From Holophagaceae bacterium (GTDB lineage Bacteria > Acidobacteriota > Holophagae > Holophagales > Holophagaceae): a DNA stretch of 64,000 nucleotides. Positions 161-7,750 of this stretch are shown piece by piece (position 1 is the first letter of the stretch; each line of letters begins with the position of its first letter). Position numbers and translations under genes: made by a program. The DNA lies in the NCBI GenBank assembly GCA_025363715.1, contig JANYLR010000082.1:1-64000 (forward strand). The letters are read 5' to 3'. The notes under the pieces are model-generated. The model had not been told where the DNA came from. It worked only from the letters and a program-made list of their open reading frames with translations, and did not search any database.

Positions 161-438
161 CATCCAGCCTAACCGCGATCCCCTTCCCGCCGCGAATTCG
201 GCGTCCGCGCAGGCGGTGTTGGCGCGGGAAACCCCTGATTTTCAAGGTGATTTTAAGCACTGGAAAAATCCGGTAGGCACCCCTTGACACCCCTACATGT
301 TGGGGCCATCCTTTTCTTCCGGCACAACCCATAGAGGTCAGACCACTTGTCCCCACCTCCCGGGGAAAGGTGTGTACACCTCTAGGGAATGCCCTGTCAT
401 CGAACAGCCCTTCCTCCCCCATTGCCCAGGACAGACAC
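161..438. other. intergenic leader between ffs and the ribonucleotide reductase gene
   Basis: This 278-base stretch separates the minus-strand SRP RNA from the plus-strand reductase gene and should hold both promoters. A near-palindrome CCCCTACATGTTGGGG lies at about 287-302, just after a TTGACA hexamer. I see no convincing -10 partner, no NrdR-box pair and no cobalamin-riboswitch core. No gene is supported here. Confidence 0.4.
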
Positions 439-3837
<3,399 letters not shown>

Positions 3838-3843
3838 TTATTT

Positions 3844-3850
3844 GTTAGCC
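3844..3850 (+). other. possible integron core site (GTTAGCC) at the left edge of the cassette-like island
   Basis: The heptamer GTTAGCC stands seven bases after the reductase stop codon and seven bases before the ATG of the Doc/Fic-type gene. Integron cassettes join at GTTRRRY, and cassette ORFs usually start within a few bases of it; this heptamer differs from that consensus at the sixth base. The base composition drops from GC-rich to AT-rich exactly here. By itself a heptamer is weak; it gains weight from the two attC-like elements downstream. Confidence 0.3.
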
Positions 3851-3856
3851 GCCACC

Positions 3857-4744
3857 ATGTTCTTCCTCGATAGCAATGTTCAACAGGAATACGAAAGATG
3901 GGCCGCTCTCATTGGCGAGCACGACCCGTACGCCTCAATTACCTCGCTTGGAATCCATGACGTTCTACGAGCGCACTTTCTAATCATCGATTTCTTCTCG
4001 CATGAAAGAGAAGGAGAAGGTTTTGGTGGAATTGGACCTAAGGATTTAAACCTTTTACATTCTGCAATCTATCGTCAGTTTATTTCTTTTGAGGGAAAAG
4101 ATAGATGGCCAACCTCCTTTGAAAAATGTGCCACGCTCATATTCGGAATTGTGAAAGACCATCCATTTCACGATGCCAACAAGCGGACTGGTTTTTTGGT
4201 CATGCTCTATTTTCTTGAACGCCTAGGCCGAGTCCCAAGAATCAAGCAGAGAGAATTTGAGAATTTTATCGTTGAAGTAGTCGAGAACAAATTAGATCTA
4301 TACCCGAGGTACCGAGAATTAAAGAAAACAGCCCAAGATCCGGAGATTCAATTCATTGCTGATTTCATTAGGAGGGGATCTCGTGAGTTAGATCGCCACA
4401 CCTACACTGTTACTTTTCACGAACTCAACCAAATTATCAAACCACATGGCTTCGAATTATTGAATCCAAAAGGGAACTACATAGATGTGGTGAAGATCGA
4501 ATACCAGCCCAAGTACCTCGGGTTTCTCGGACCTGAAGTGAGGAAAGAAACACGTATGGCGCAAATCGGATTCCCTGGCTGGAAGCGACAGGCAACAAAA
4601 GCCGCCTTGAAAACAGTGCGAGAATCTACAGGGCTCACACCAGAAAAAGGATTCGATTCAAAGGTGTTTTATCAAGGGGCAGACCCACTACACTCGCTCA
4701 TTGACATATATGCAGGCCCCCTCCAGAGGCTTGCTGATCGCTAA
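3857..4744 (+). CDS. Doc/Fic-family protein with HicA-like C-terminal segment
   Basis: A 295-residue protein with the Fic/Doc active-site motif HPFHDANKRTG at residues 102-112. The NKR form is that of Doc (death-on-curing), whose known member phosphorylates EF-Tu, rather than the GNGR form of AMP-transferring Fic enzymes. Doc is only about 126 residues, so there is a long C-terminal extension. Part of it (TFHELNQIIKPHGFELL...) resembles the HicA mRNA-interferase fold, a resemblance by eye only. ATG 3857 is preferred; an in-frame TTG lies at 3842. Codon use is AT-rich, unlike the flanking genes. No partner antitoxin gene is visible beside it. Substrate unknown. Confidence 0.78.
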   Translation: MFFLDSNVQQEYERWAALIGEHDPYASITSLGIHDVLRAHFLIIDFFSHEREGEGFGGIGPKDLNLLHSAIYRQFISFEGKDRWPTSFEKCATLIFGIVKDHPFHDANKRTGFLVMLYFLERLGRVPRIKQREFENFIVEVVENKLDLYPRYRELKKTAQDPEIQFIADFIRRGSRELDRHTYTVTFHELNQIIKPHGFELLNPKGNYIDVVKIEYQPKYLGFLGPEVRKETRMAQIGFPGWKRQATKAALKTVRESTGLTPEKGFDSKVFYQGADPLHSLIDIYAGPLQRLADR

Positions 4745-4747
4745 TCA

Positions 4748-4880
4748 GGCGGCAAACCCTCCGCTTAATTCGGCCCCCGCCGGCATTGTCTTCAGCTTTC
4801 TCTCAACTTCTCGCTTTCTCGGCTTCGCTCACCGCCTCGGTGCAGGCGTGGCCAGTAAGCTTCATTCGATGAGCCACACT
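4748..4880 (+). repeat. attC-like recombination element, copy 1 (degenerate)
   Basis: This segment is an imperfect direct repeat (about 75 % by eye) of 6327-6447; both share GGCATTGTCTTC/TGCATTGTCTTC, CTCTCAACTTC and a GCCTCGG-GCAGGCG block. The outer arms can fold back: the GCTTAATTCGGCC stretch near 4762-4775 pairs with GGCCAGTAAGC near 4859-4869, as in the L boxes of an attC site. The expected outer GTTRRRY box is missing (GATGAGCC is present instead), so this copy may be inactive. It ends about 30 bases before the stop codon of the minus-strand DUF5677-like gene. Confidence 0.5.
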
Positions 4881-4908
4881 AAATCCTCAAATGCCACAAC
4901 CGAAAGAC

Positions 4909-6192
4909 CTAGTTCACATTGTCTGCCCCAGATTTACCCATTTTTGCCAAACGCTTAGCTGCCCCGATGAATTTCAGTTCTACGTCGCGGCTCAACTTTC
5001 TAATTATTTCAACTTCTACCAATTGATCAATTGTTGGTTCCAAACATAGCAAGGCCATTGAAATCATGCAGTATGATCTCGCAGCCAGTACCCCTGGTAT
5101 TTCGAGTCCTACATTGCTTGGCCCAGCTAGTAACGCAGATCCCTGGCTGTGCCTCAACCCAAGCCGAGTTGAATCCCCCATAGGCCCCGCATGAACGTTG
5201 GTACTCGATAGGTGGTAATCCGCACGCAAAGGTTCGTGTTCCATTAACCTTTCCAACTTTTCGAAGGTAATGTGTGGATCAGTGATTTCGCCTGAAGCCC
5301 AGCCGTACCCTTTAGAAAAGGCTTTCCCAAATCGCGACACGACAGTGTCGTACGCCTCAACCAGGGTTTCAAATTCTTGGGCCGTTTCCGCGTCTGTCAG
5401 CATTTCTTTGTTTACTGCGATTTCATGGCGAGCACTCTTCATGTTCTCTACAATTTCGTGCAACAAATAACGCTCCGCCAATTCTTGATTATGTTTCGCT
5501 ATAAAGCCTGACACCACTGACATCTCGTGAAGACACCTCCATCGAGCATAGGCACCATCTGCGTATCCACTCTCAAGCAGAACACGAATTTCCTGAATTA
5601 CCTGGCATGCCCGCGCATGGATTCTTCGCAGAGCTTCCCTTTTGTAGTCTGGATGTTCTGGATCGTTTTTGGGTTCCATCGCATTCCGAGACCCGATTTC
5701 CACTCCAACATAGCCTAATGTTCTAATCGAATAGAATGCACTTCCCCAAACTCTGAACAAATTCTGTGCAAAGGCATCCTCTTCGTCTTGCCTACCTAAC
5801 AGTAATTCATCTGAATCACGTTTTATGAATTCCAATATGGCTTTTACAACACCCGCAATAGAACTCTTAACGGCCCTTGGCACTCGGTTCATTTTTCGAT
5901 TAAGCAGTCTCTCGGCTTCCTGGAATACCCGCCCTAAGGCTCTTTCAACCTTTTTCTTGATTTGAATTTCACTTAACGGCTTGAGCTGGTCGATTTGTTT
6001 GTCACTTATCTCTATATGCAATATTTTTCCCTCTTCACAATTCGCAATATCCTCTTTTAGCTTTTTTCGCTGGGTATTGGTAATCCTAATTCCAACCTTT
6101 CTTAAGCAATTTTCTACAGCCTCTAGTACGAGCACATTTGGCGCGGTCACCTTATGCAGTTCACGATCAAACAATTCCTGCAGGTTCGACAT
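4909..6192 (-). CDS. DUF5677-like protein of unknown function
   Basis: A 427-residue soluble-looking protein. The middle (about residues 175-270), with VLLESGYADGAYARWRCLHE and ...AERYLLHE, resembles the helical DUF5677 family often met in defence and mobile regions; its activity is not known to me. No signal peptide or membrane segment is seen, and the N-terminal 130 residues are charged helices. ATG 6192 is chosen because AGGGG lies five bases upstream; a GTG two codons earlier overlaps that site. It runs opposite to the presumed cassette direction, lies between two attC-like repeats and has AT-rich codon use, which points to transfer. Confidence 0.72.
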   Translation of the reverse strand: MSNLQELFDRELHKVTAPNVLVLEAVENCLRKVGIRITNTQRKKLKEDIANCEEGKILHIEISDKQIDQLKPLSEIQIKKKVERALGRVFQEAERLLNRKMNRVPRAVKSSIAGVVKAILEFIKRDSDELLLGRQDEEDAFAQNLFRVWGSAFYSIRTLGYVGVEIGSRNAMEPKNDPEHPDYKREALRRIHARACQVIQEIRVLLESGYADGAYARWRCLHEMSVVSGFIAKHNQELAERYLLHEIVENMKSARHEIAVNKEMLTDAETAQEFETLVEAYDTVVSRFGKAFSKGYGWASGEITDPHITFEKLERLMEHEPLRADYHLSSTNVHAGPMGDSTRLGLRHSQGSALLAGPSNVGLEIPGVLAARSYCMISMALLCLEPTIDQLVEVEIIRKLSRDVELKFIGAAKRLAKMGKSGADNVN

Positions 6193-6326
6193 CTTCACCC
6201 CTAGGCGCTGTCTCTTGATAACGAACTATTATTCATGTCGGTCGATGATCATAACCTCGAGATGTTTCCGACAGCATGCCTGAAATAGCTTATACCCACG
6301 CAGTTCCCTACCGAACAAAGGTCGGC

Positions 6327-6447
6327 CTAACCTCCCGCTCATTCGGACCCTGCCTGCATTGTCTTCCGCTCTCTCTCAACTTCCTGCTTCCGCAGATTCC
6401 CTCAGCGCCTCGGCGCAGGCGGGCCCCGTTTGCACCCTTCGTTAGGA
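6327..6447 (+). repeat. attC-like recombination element, copy 2
   Basis: This 121-bp element begins with GCCTAAC (6327-6333, fits RYYYAAC) and ends with GTTAGGA (6441-6447, one base off GTTRRRY); the two are complementary over six bases. Inside them, CGGACCCTGCCTGC near 6345-6358 pairs imperfectly with GCGCAGGCGGGCCCCG near 6414-6429, leaving a variable middle. That is the architecture and length of an integron attC (VCR-like) site. An ORF with its own AGGAG starts seven bases after the last box, as in gene cassettes. Integrase recognition cannot be judged from sequence by eye. Confidence 0.58.
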
Positions 6448-6453
6448 GCACCC

Positions 6454-6807
6454 ATGACACCGATGCTATTGGCACTCGCGTTGGGCCTGCTCCCTCCCCA
6501 GGAAACCTCTGATCTGTCGAGCCTGTTCAAGGCGTTCCGCAATTCCTTCGGCGCCTCCGCGTCCTCTCCGGTTCACAGGCCGAAGGAGCCGATCAGGCTC
6601 TACGCCACTGACGATGGTCATACCCAGATCTGCTACATCAACGGCGACAGGATCTTTATCTATGCGAACGGTCAAACGACCAGCCCCTTGTTCGCGAAGA
6701 TGTTCAACATCCAGGCCGTCAATCGCATCACCTATCGCAAAGCGGCTGTGGGCTGGGCTTTCCTCATCTGGATCGACGATGAACTCACCCTTTCGATCGG
6801 CGCCTGA
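6454..6807 (+). CDS. small secreted or hypothetical protein directly after attC-like site
   Basis: A 117-residue protein I do not recognise. It opens with a hydrophobic stretch (MTPMLLALALGLL) that could be a short signal peptide. The rest is mixed and ends with an apparent beta-rich part (YINGDRIFIYANGQ, AFLIWIDDELTLSIGA). ATG 6454 follows GTTAGGAGCACCC, so the ribosome site AGGAG overlaps the last attC box, a layout typical of cassette genes. Base composition is intermediate between the AT-rich island and the host. A long hairpin-forming repeat follows 30 bases after the stop. Confidence 0.5.
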   Translation: MTPMLLALALGLLPPQETSDLSSLFKAFRNSFGASASSPVHRPKEPIRLYATDDGHTQICYINGDRIFIYANGQTTSPLFAKMFNIQAVNRITYRKAAVGWAFLIWIDDELTLSIGA

Positions 6808-6838
6808 CCCTTCGCCCAAGAAGGGAAAAGGAATTTCT

Positions 6839-6925
6839 GCCGGGGATGAACGGGGATTGGCGGGGATAGAACGATACGAAGCCCGGTCGTTTTTCCATCC
6901 CCGTCCATCCCCGTCTATCCCCGGC
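6839..6925. repeat. inverted repeat built of 10-base CGGGGATnnn modules
   Basis: The left arm (6839-6870) has three tandem 10-base modules beginning CGGGGAT. The right arm (6894-6925) has three such modules on the other strand. The arms pair over about 30 bases around a 23-base loop. It lies between the small cassette-like gene and the convergent nudC gene, where it could act as a bidirectional transcription stop or be a mobile REP-like unit. Confidence 0.7.
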
Positions 6926-6958
6926 TAAATTGGCTTTTGCTTTTCCGCCAAAGTTTTC

Positions 6959-7699
6959 TCAACCCTGATCCGACTCCGCCAGTGCCGCATCCAGCATCCA
7001 CCGGGCGATGCTGAGGGCGCTGGGCAGCAGGGGCAGGTCGGCCCGGGTGAACCAGCGGGCATCCTCGATCTCGTCGGGATTGGGCTTCAGCTCGCCATCG
7101 AGGTAGTCGGCCGTGAAGCCCACCATGAGGCCGTTGGGGAAGGGCCAGGGCTGGCTGCCGAAGTAGCGCAGGTTCTGGACGCGGAGGCCCAGCTCTTCCG
7201 CCACCTCCCGGTGCACGGCCTGCTCCAGGGATTCCCCGGGCTCCGTGAACCCCGCCACGGCGCTGTAGACGCCAGGCTTGAAGTGGGGTGAGCGGGCCAG
7301 GGCCCAGGCCCGGGCCGATCCCTCGCCCCGCTGGATGAGCACGATGACGGCCGTCGCGTTCGAGGGAAAGACCGTGAGGCCGCAGGCCGGGCACTCGAGG
7401 CTGTGGCCCTCACCGGGCGCCAGCTCCCGGCCGCAGCCGCCACAGAAGCGGTGCCCCGCCTCCCATTCCAGCCACTGATAGGCGCGGCCCGCGCGGGCCC
7501 AGGCTTCCGGATCCAACCGGTCGAAGGCCTCCCGGAGCCCCAGGGCCTCCACGCCCTCGGGCAGAGGATGCTCCTCGGCCACCCGCTCCACCAGGATCCC
7601 CTCGGGCAGGGTCAGGCTGACCTCGGCCTGGACCTCCGGCAGTGGCCCGGCGAAGAGCCAGAGACGGTCTCCCTGGTAGACGATCCGCGCTTCACTCAT
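6959..7699 (-). CDS. nudC: NADH pyrophosphatase / NAD-cap hydrolase NudC-like Nudix protein
   Basis: A 246-residue Nudix hydrolase expected to split NAD(H) into NMN(H) and AMP, and in known NudC to remove NAD caps from RNA. In order: a divergent N-terminal domain, a zinc ribbon (CGGCG...CPACG), then the Nudix box GFTEPGESLEQAVHREVAEELGL. The NudC signature SQPWPFPNG follows 15-20 residues later, and this separates it from other Nudix proteins. ATG 7699 has GGAGGAGG just upstream; an extension of 11 residues is possible but lacks a ribosome site. It lies downstream of the cytochrome gene's stop codon on the same strand. Confidence 0.9.
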   Translation of the reverse strand: MSEARIVYQGDRLWLFAGPLPEVQAEVSLTLPEGILVERVAEEHPLPEGVEALGLREAFDRLDPEAWARAGRAYQWLEWEAGHRFCGGCGRELAPGEGHSLECPACGLTVFPSNATAVIVLIQRGEGSARAWALARSPHFKPGVYSAVAGFTEPGESLEQAVHREVAEELGLRVQNLRYFGSQPWPFPNGLMVGFTADYLDGELKPNPDEIEDARWFTRADLPLLPSALSIARWMLDAALAESDQG

Positions 7700-7750
7700 G
7701 CCTCCTCCGCTGCGGGGCCAACCCGGACCCAAAGGGTTGTGGGGTCCAAG

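What the first reader, a model, noticed from the sequence alone, without database searches (positions are those of the whole stretch)
3857..4744. Doc-type kinase-like protein fused to a HicA-like tail
The active-site motif is the Doc version (HPFHDANKRTG), but the protein is more than twice Doc length and its C-terminal part resembles the RNA-cleaving HicA fold. A double toxin in one polypeptide, without a visible antitoxin gene, would be unusual.
Basis: inference. Interest (0 to 1): 0.5.

Follow-up and report, generated by a model that had tools for sequence, protein, structure and literature searches.

The report
Doc-type toxin carrying HicA-like tail
A single bacterial gene joins a Doc-type protein-modifying toxin to a tail that looks like another toxin (HicA) but lacks that toxin's cutting residue; several relatives sit on phages, so it may be a one-gene toxin with its own built-in control or aiming part rather than a double toxin.

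Summary
The gene at 3857-4744 is real: 295 aa, a Doc-subfamily Fic domain (PF02661, TIGR01550; motif HPFHDANKRT) plus a 137-residue tail without a Pfam match above cut-off. "Double toxin" does not hold: in 24 aligned relatives none has His at the HicA G-S-H site and no tail column has His in 8 or more. The Doc motif is kept in 22 of 24. No Phd-type (PF02604) or HicB-type (PF15919) gene lies beside the gene in 21 genomes or records searched. All 18 fused Fic domains in a 53-row tree fall in one group, with 2 unfused. Carriers: filamentous phages, other prophages, a type I R-M locus with an integrase and, here, a low-GC insert between nrdJ and a NUDIX gene that is empty in four congeners. Best reading: a mobile one-gene Doc-type enzyme whose HicA-derived, RNase-dead tail controls or aims it; that role is inferred. 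A 2024 survey of HicA contexts has neither "Fic" nor "Doc" in its main text.

The parts
3857..4744 (+). fic-tail gene, 295 aa (Doc-type Fic domain plus HicA-like C-terminal domain)
3956..4216 (+). Fic/Doc domain, residues 34-120
   Evidence: PF02661 E 1.6e-12; best structural row is Doc 3dd7, Z 13.2, 121 aligned, rmsd 2.3
4160..4192 (+). active-site motif HPFHDANKRTG, residues 102-112
   Evidence: HxFxx[GA]NKR kept in 22 of 24 aligned relatives
4415..4630 (+). HicA-like core of the tail, residues 187-258 (alpha-beta-beta-beta-alpha)
   Evidence: AlphaFold2 models; HicA chains among the best PDB rows; hhalign against HicA above 200 of 200 shuffles
4472..4480 (+). G206-N207-Y208, the place of the HicA G-S-H motif; no His
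   Evidence: hhalign register; 0 of 24 His, read off the rows
4634..4672 (+). conserved stretch after the core, residues 260-272 (LTPEKGFDSKVFY; L260, G265, D267, F271)
   Evidence: pLDDT under 50 at 265-274
430..3837 (+). class II (B12-dependent) ribonucleotide reductase nrdJ, left border of the insert (start codon not resolved)
   Evidence: PF08471, PF02867
4909..6198 (-). DUF5677 protein, convergent neighbour in the same low-GC insert
   Evidence: PF18928 E 1.1e-23; GC 41-50%
3838..6958 (.). insert between nrdJ and the NUDIX gene; 41-54% GC from about 3800 to 6350, 55-61% from there to about 6950, flanks 64-76%
   Evidence: in four congeners the matches to the two genes end 106-157 bp apart
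6959..7732 (-). NUDIX / NADH-pyrophosphatase-like gene, right border of the insert
   Evidence: PF00293, PF09297; homologue found beyond nrdJ in 12 of 20 congener regions

Best explanation
A one-gene, mobile toxin or effector. The N-terminal domain is a Doc-type Fic enzyme which, by its NKR motif, most likely phosphorylates a protein (EF-Tu is the precedent for Doc, from recall). The C-terminal domain descends from the HicA/dsRBD-like fold but has lost the RNase residue; it acts in cis as a control module that keeps the enzyme in check until a trigger, and perhaps presents the target, so that no separate antitoxin gene is needed. Phages and islands would use it for host takeover, superinfection exclusion or abortive defence. 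Shown here: domain content, Doc motif, predicted tail fold, absence of the His, grouping of the fused proteins in one tree, carriage by phages and islands. Inferred: descent from HicA, kinase activity, target, cis control, biological role.
For: Doc domain and motif, Doc the best structural row (Z 13.2). Tail predicted as a-b-b-b-a, core pLDDT about 90. PDB rows 1whz, 6hpb, 6g26, 5yrz and 4p78 aligned over 70 of 70, 57 of 57, 60 of 60, 57 of 58 and 62 of 66 residues (1whz and 5yrz are HicA proteins from recall, the titles of the other three say HicAB or HicA3). hhalign score 28.2, E 1.5e-4, against at most 16.9 in 200 column shuffles. 0 of 24 His at the catalytic site. No PF02604 and no PF15919 match beside the gene in 21 genomes or records. 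Among small ORFs around 17 loci the only ones shared are between L038 and L042 and between L031 and L043. 18 of 18 fused Fic domains in one group with 2 unfused, support 94/94. Two pairs of homologues have dN/dS under 0.1 in both parts. Carriers: filamentous phages, prophages with repressor-like or tail genes, a type I R-M locus with integrase, the insert here. Precedents for control in cis: CapRel and EzeT as described in PMC10865869 section 11.
Against: No biochemical evidence for activity, target or inhibition. L038 and L042 have a second Doc gene directly upstream, preceded by a small conserved ORF. Enteric filamentous phages carry a co-directional 60-aa ORF of unknown family 152 bases upstream that could be an antitoxin, although it is absent from the L032 region, whose protein is 92.6% identical. 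Two relatives with a broken Fic motif (L005, L012) still have dN/dS 0.056 (Fic part) and 0.092 (tail), so the tail may do more than restrain a toxin. In Sofic, deleting the C-terminal domain abolished toxicity (PMC12249575 section 2.4), so such a domain may be needed for activity. HicA scores are modest: hhalign probability 51.5% at best, 23.8% with 23 tails, 6.1% with the full-length profile; Foldseek E 0.18; two chains of human p32 rank between the HicA rows.
Confidence: 0.45

Rival explanations
1. Targeting module: the HicA-like tail does not inhibit but docks the Doc-type enzyme on its substrate or on RNA (for example a ribosome- or tRNA-bound factor).
For: [quoted passage not shown] PMC10865869 abstract). 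The dead-Fic relatives L005 and L012 keep the tail under selection. The Sofic C-terminal domain is needed for toxicity.
Against: Tail net charge runs only from -3 to +10 in 13 proteins, +3 in the window: no general basic signal. No RNA-binding motif was identified.
Confidence: 0.28
2. Ordinary two-gene toxin-antitoxin system in which the antitoxin is an unrecognised small protein or acts from elsewhere; the tail is accessory.
For: Small ORFs lie upstream in enteric filamentous phages and in L038/L042. PF02604 lay beside only 1 of 20 stand-alone Docs used as control, so absence of that model is weak evidence.
Against: The enteric 60-aa ORF was found in L033, L037 and L194 only among 19 loci searched. 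At the window the upstream gene is nrdJ. No co-directional small ORF is shared beyond L038/L042.
Confidence: 0.17
3. True double toxin: both a Doc kinase and a HicA-type RNase are active.
For: Fold likeness.
Against: No His at the G-S-H position in 24 of 24 proteins and no other tail column with His in 8 or more of 24.
Confidence: 0.05
4. Decaying cargo gene without function in this genome.
For: Homologues are broken elsewhere: an ISL3-type transposase gene lies inside the gene in L002, frameshifts in L031 and L199. No other genome of the genus gave a full-length match or a tail match (G190 matched the Fic part only).
Against: The window ORF is intact over 295 codons with the motif and conserved tail residues in place.
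Confidence: 0.05

Closest known systems
Doc toxin of the Phd-Doc module (TIGR01550, PF02661)
   Same: Fic fold, HxFxx[GA]NKR motif, best structural row (Z 13.2 to 3dd7)
   Different: About twice the length, extra HicA-like domain, no Phd gene recognised beside it
HicA toxin (PF07927)
   Same: Predicted a-b-b-b-a fold of the tail; profile aligns in the same register over 64 columns
   Different: No Pfam match; His of G-S-H absent in 24 of 24; extra conserved C-terminal part (L260 to L292-A293); fused to a Doc domain. The survey of 14 HicA contexts, PMC10865869 (abstract, outline, section 11 and a term search seen), has no occurrence of 'Fic' or 'Doc' in its main text
phrog_18015 (phage protein family, unknown function)
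   Same: Same two-part architecture: the 244-aa enteric phage protein matches it end to end (E 5e-175) and the window protein over residues 58-276
   Different: Window protein is longer at the N-terminus and between the second and third tail strands; PHROGs gives no function
Sofic (Fic plus C-terminal domain, single-protein anti-phage defence with small antitoxin AS1)
   Same: Fic enzyme with a C-terminal domain that sets toxicity (PMC12249575: abstract, introduction and section 2.4 seen)
   Different: Described there as a class 2 AMPylase with an inhibitory helix; homology of its C-terminal domain to this tail was not tested
Fused toxin-antitoxins CapRel and EzeT
   Same: Toxic domain and control domain in one chain (as described in PMC10865869 section 11)
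   Different: Other domains; an analogy only

Membership tests
Fic/Doc family, Doc subfamily | PF02661 / TIGR01550 match above cut-off | tested here: met
   48.5 vs 24 bits; 44.0 vs 38.65 bits
Fic/Doc family, Doc subfamily | HxFxx[GA]NKR motif with Lys in place of the second Gly | tested here: met
   HPFHDANKR at residues 102-110; 22 of 24 relatives keep the motif
Fic/Doc family, Doc subfamily | Kinase activity on a target such as EF-Tu | not testable with these tools
   inference from the motif; a passage of PMC4454073 says Doc domains catalyse phosphorylation
Phd-Doc toxin-antitoxin module | Phd-type antitoxin gene adjacent | tested here: not met
   PF02604: the match in this genome is on another contig (C81); 6 of 21 genomes or records have matches, none beside the gene. 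Weak test: control with stand-alone Docs 1 of 20
HicA (PF07927) | Pfam HicA_toxin match | tested here: not met
   not listed at E up to 1 for the window protein nor for 8 relatives, nor at E up to 10 for 4 others
HicA (PF07927) | HicA/dsRBD-like a-b-b-b-a fold | tested here: met
   a predicted model with modest scores (Z 4.5-5.9)
HicA (PF07927) | catalytic His in G-S-H | tested here: not met
   G206-N207-Y208; 0 of 24 His
HicA (PF07927) | adjacent HicB antitoxin | tested here: not met
   PF15919: 4 of 21 genomes or records have matches, none beside the gene; the same search finds a HicB-like match beside the genome's own HicA-like place on contig C23. Other HicB models (such as PF05534, from recall) were not searched
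Class 2/3 Fic with inhibitory helix | [ST]xxxE[GN] motif | tested here: not met
   SHEREG at residue 48 of the window protein fits the pattern, but 10 of 11 homologues have no match and the other has one elsewhere, at residue 221: not conserved

The most novel reading that the evidence does not exclude
A sparse but widely spread one-gene toxin-antitoxin or phage-sensor protein in which an old toxin fold (HicA) was stripped of its RNase residue and turned into the built-in brake or sensor of a second toxin (Doc kinase), spread by filamentous phages, other prophages and defence-type islands, and kept in two genomes of the window's own family even after the Doc active site was lost.
Probability: 0.33. 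Interest if true: 0.7.

Novelty: new variant of a known kind. Interest (0 to 1): 0.5.

Why it matters
How Fic/Doc enzymes without a recognised antitoxin gene are held in check, and what filamentous phages gain from cargo genes, are open questions. A toxin fold reused as the control or aiming part of a different toxin would be an unusual route to a one-gene system. The enteric phage version sits in E. coli prophages (at least 5 of 5,426 genomes by megablast), so it can be tested in a laboratory strain. It also gives a domain reading for a phage protein family without a function (phrog_18015).

Tried and rejected
Second active toxin: rejected on the missing His. Inhibitory helix motif in the window protein: not conserved, probably chance. 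Separately translated tail as antitoxin (as in Rpn, seen only as the start of an abstract in a search listing): in-frame ATG/GTG/TTG codons in 16 loci show no shared start with a ribosome-binding site at the tail border. RNA binding by charge: net -3 to +10 in 13 tails, no clear signal. PADLOC: matches lie in the Fic part of PDC models only. Viral structure library with the full model: 2 of 471 listed matches at E <= 0.001, both without names. Weak DUF7787 match to the tail (18 bits, cut-off 25): below cut-off and not listed for 8 of 8 relatives. The whole-genome tail scan with A5 used two patterns and gave 3 loci, so it is no count of the family. The G095 hit is a 37-column match inside a 451-aa frame: set aside as spurious. 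L003 was left out of the tree because the motif pattern did not match it; L203-L206 were found later and are not in the tree; L086 was left out of the tail alignment A8 (present in A7) and of the 23 tails. The 8 HicA proteins of A9 were chosen from 30 loci by a G-S-H-like pattern, so that profile is not a random sample. Four of six pairs for dN/dS were saturated at synonymous sites. Literature: no paper in the held library has Fic domain, HicA, fusion and toxin-antitoxin together; 'Fic-HicA', 'Doc-HicA', 'HicA-Fic', 'HicA-Doc' and 'HicA-like fold' occur in none and 'HicA-like domain' in one paper on archaeal persisters (listing only); most subscription papers are not held.

Full report
Observation. 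The ORF at 3857-4744 (+) encodes 295 aa from an ATG. It scores as a Fic/Doc protein (PF02661, residues 34-120, 48.5 bits against a cut-off of 24) and as the Doc subfamily (TIGR01550, 44.0 against 38.65), with HPFHDANKRTG at residues 102-112. No Pfam family passes its cut-off in the tail. The search of its own genome gave one match.

The tail. AlphaFold2 on an alignment of 11 full-length proteins gave mean pLDDT 83.4, pTM 0.67, and a tail of helix 187-197, strands 199-205, 208-218, 227-238 and helix 248-258. The tail alone (14 rows; mean pLDDT 77.5, pTM 0.62) gave the same order with a core near pLDDT 90. Among PDB chains re-aligned to the tail model the first seven rows are 1whz (Z 5.9, 70 of 70 residues, rmsd 3.1), 6hpb (5.7, 57 of 57), two chains of human p32 (4.8 each, rmsd 10.7 and 2.9), 6g26 (4.7), 5yrz (4.5) and 4p78 (4.5). 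6hpb, 6g26 and 4p78 are titled as HicAB or HicA3-HicB3 complexes; that 1whz and 5yrz hold HicA proteins is from recall. The whole model gave 1whz (Z 5.8), 6g26 (4.7) and 4p78 (4.4) beside Doc (Z 13.2) and other Fic proteins. The tool's note warns that Z under 8 may mean only a common arrangement. Plain Foldseek was weak (1whz first, E 0.18, probability 0.82). A profile of 14 tails against 8 HicA proteins from the same phylum gave E 1.5e-4, probability 51.5%, score 28.2 over 64 columns. 200 column-shuffled HicA profiles reached at most 16.9 and the reversed one 10.1; the window-like six tails alone scored 23.7 (maximum of 100 shuffles 18.65) and the phage-like eight alone 20.5 over only 30 columns (15.84). 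With 23 tails the score was 24.6, probability 23.8% (maximum of 200 shuffles 19.7), and with the full-length profile 22.4, probability 6.1%, placed on the tail in the same register. I take the HicA-like fold as supported and homology as likely, not proven.

Catalysis. In that register HicA G-S-H corresponds to G206-N207-Y208. In 24 aligned relatives (20 with intact motif and full length, two with a degenerate Fic motif, two partial) none has His there, and no tail column holds His in 8 or more. The Doc motif is kept in 22 of 24; the exceptions L005 and L012, from the same family as the window genome, read LPFYDGNAQT. Conserved tail residues after the core: L260 (24 of 24), G265 (23), D267 (22), F271 (21), L292 (24), A293 (21); in front of or inside it R176 (22), L190 (22), G241 (21).

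Family and carriers. Full-length relatives came from IMG/VR (among 71 loci), 3 species genomes (Rhodanobacter, a Phycisphaerae MAG, Acetobacter lambici), plasmid records of Salmonella and Klebsiella (5 of 290 matching records cover at least 80% of the enteric protein) and Vibrio filamentous phages (3 of 47 matching records; there the gene is frameshifted and annotated as two CDS). The Salmonella record and the E. coli locus are annotated filamentous phage units; at least 5 of 5,426 E. coli genomes carry the gene (megablast). L043 and L086 lie beside a Zot-type assembly gene (PF05707). L038/L042 carry it between a second Doc gene (PF02661) and a Peptidase_S24 repressor-like gene. L105 lies near collar and baseplate V genes. 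L108 lies directly after type I specificity and HsdR genes and before a phage-integrase gene. L032 has a TIR-domain gene about 2.7 kb upstream. Tail matches occurred in 6 of 392 genomes of the own phylum (two doubtful: G029 frameshifted, G095 spurious) and in 5 of 398 of the phylum of the Rhodanobacter genome, one of them that genome itself; the other four have a Fic domain in front. A tree of 53 Fic domains puts 18 fused and 2 unfused rows (L049, L067) in one group with support 94/94 and 33 unfused rows on the other side. The label needs 2 changes, and one origin is seen in 10% of bootstrap trees: a single fusion fits but is not shown.

Selection. Between the Salmonella and Klebsiella proteins dN/dS is 0.023 (Fic part) and 0.042 (tail). 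Between the two dead-Fic proteins it is 0.056 and 0.092. The other four pairs were saturated at synonymous sites. The window protein itself was not in any pair.

Antitoxin. PF02604 matches exist in 6 of 21 genomes or records, none beside the gene; PF15919 matches in 4 of 21, none beside the gene. The virus records may be fragments. The PF02604 control is weak: among 20 genomes with a stand-alone Doc only G037 has such a match beside that Doc. Small ORFs (35-160 aa within 700 bases) around 17 loci are shared between L038 and L042 and, as an opposite-strand phage regulator-like ORF plus a 13-residue match, between L031 and L043. The 60-aa ORF upstream in enteric phages matches no Pfam family and, among 19 loci, is found only in L033, L037 and L194 and not in the L032 region.

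Window context. The gene starts 19 bases after the nrdJ stop. GC falls from 64-76% in the flanks to 41-54% between about 3800 and 6350. In four congeners (G065, G142, G150, G236) the matches to nrdJ and to the NUDIX gene end 106-157 bp apart. Of 20 congener regions fetched (some cut short by contig ends), 12 reach the NUDIX gene; two of these, L149 and L157, hold a 945-947 bp low-GC insert with a DUF3800 gene, and L145 has a DUF5677 gene right after nrdJ. Others carry higher-GC inserts. The site is a small insertion hot spot.

Mechanism. The best-supported reading is a mobile one-gene Doc-type enzyme with a HicA-like, RNase-dead domain acting in cis. Control is preferred over targeting because no antitoxin is shared by the different carriers; the dead-Fic relatives and the Sofic result (PMC12249575 section 2.4) argue for a more active role, and I hold 0.45 against 0.28.

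Literature. The HicA survey PMC10865869 (outline, abstract, section 11, term search) lists 14 contexts, four of them fused (section headings: hicAB/hicBA fusions and an SMC fusion), with no occurrence of Fic or Doc in the main text. PMC12249575: abstract, introduction and section 2.4. PMC2701414, PMC4454073 and PMC7307601: passages only; the last describes UPphi filamentous phages with a variable accessory region and has no occurrence of Fic or Doc. Searches found no report of a Fic/Doc-HicA fusion in the held library.

Noticed in passing
window 3838-6958; L149, L157, L145: The junction downstream of nrdJ is an insertion hot spot in this genus: empty in four congeners, elsewhere filled with low-GC genes (DUF3800, DUF5677, fic-tail) that begin soon after the nrdJ stop codon.
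   Followed up: partly
L005 1471-2343 (-), L012 933-1805 (-): Two relatives in the same family have lost the Fic catalytic His, Lys and Arg, yet both parts have dN/dS under 0.1; possibly a non-catalytic version kept for the tail.
   Followed up: partly
L038 3231-4648, L042 3130-4648: Phage loci with a small ORF, a second stand-alone Doc and the fic-tail gene in a row, next to a Peptidase_S24 repressor-like gene on the other strand.
   Followed up: partly
L033 3582-3764; L194 692-874 and 8666-8848: 60-aa ORF of unknown family, co-directional and upstream of the fic-tail gene in enteric filamentous phages; it looks like an RHH regulator or antitoxin (from recall, no Pfam match).
   Followed up: partly
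L002 5-2217: In a same-family genome the homologue is interrupted by an ISL3-type transposase gene on the opposite strand, between its N-terminal and C-terminal parts.
   Followed up: partly
L206 649-1887: A homologue with an additional N-terminal stretch of roughly 150 residues in front of the Fic domain.
   Followed up: no
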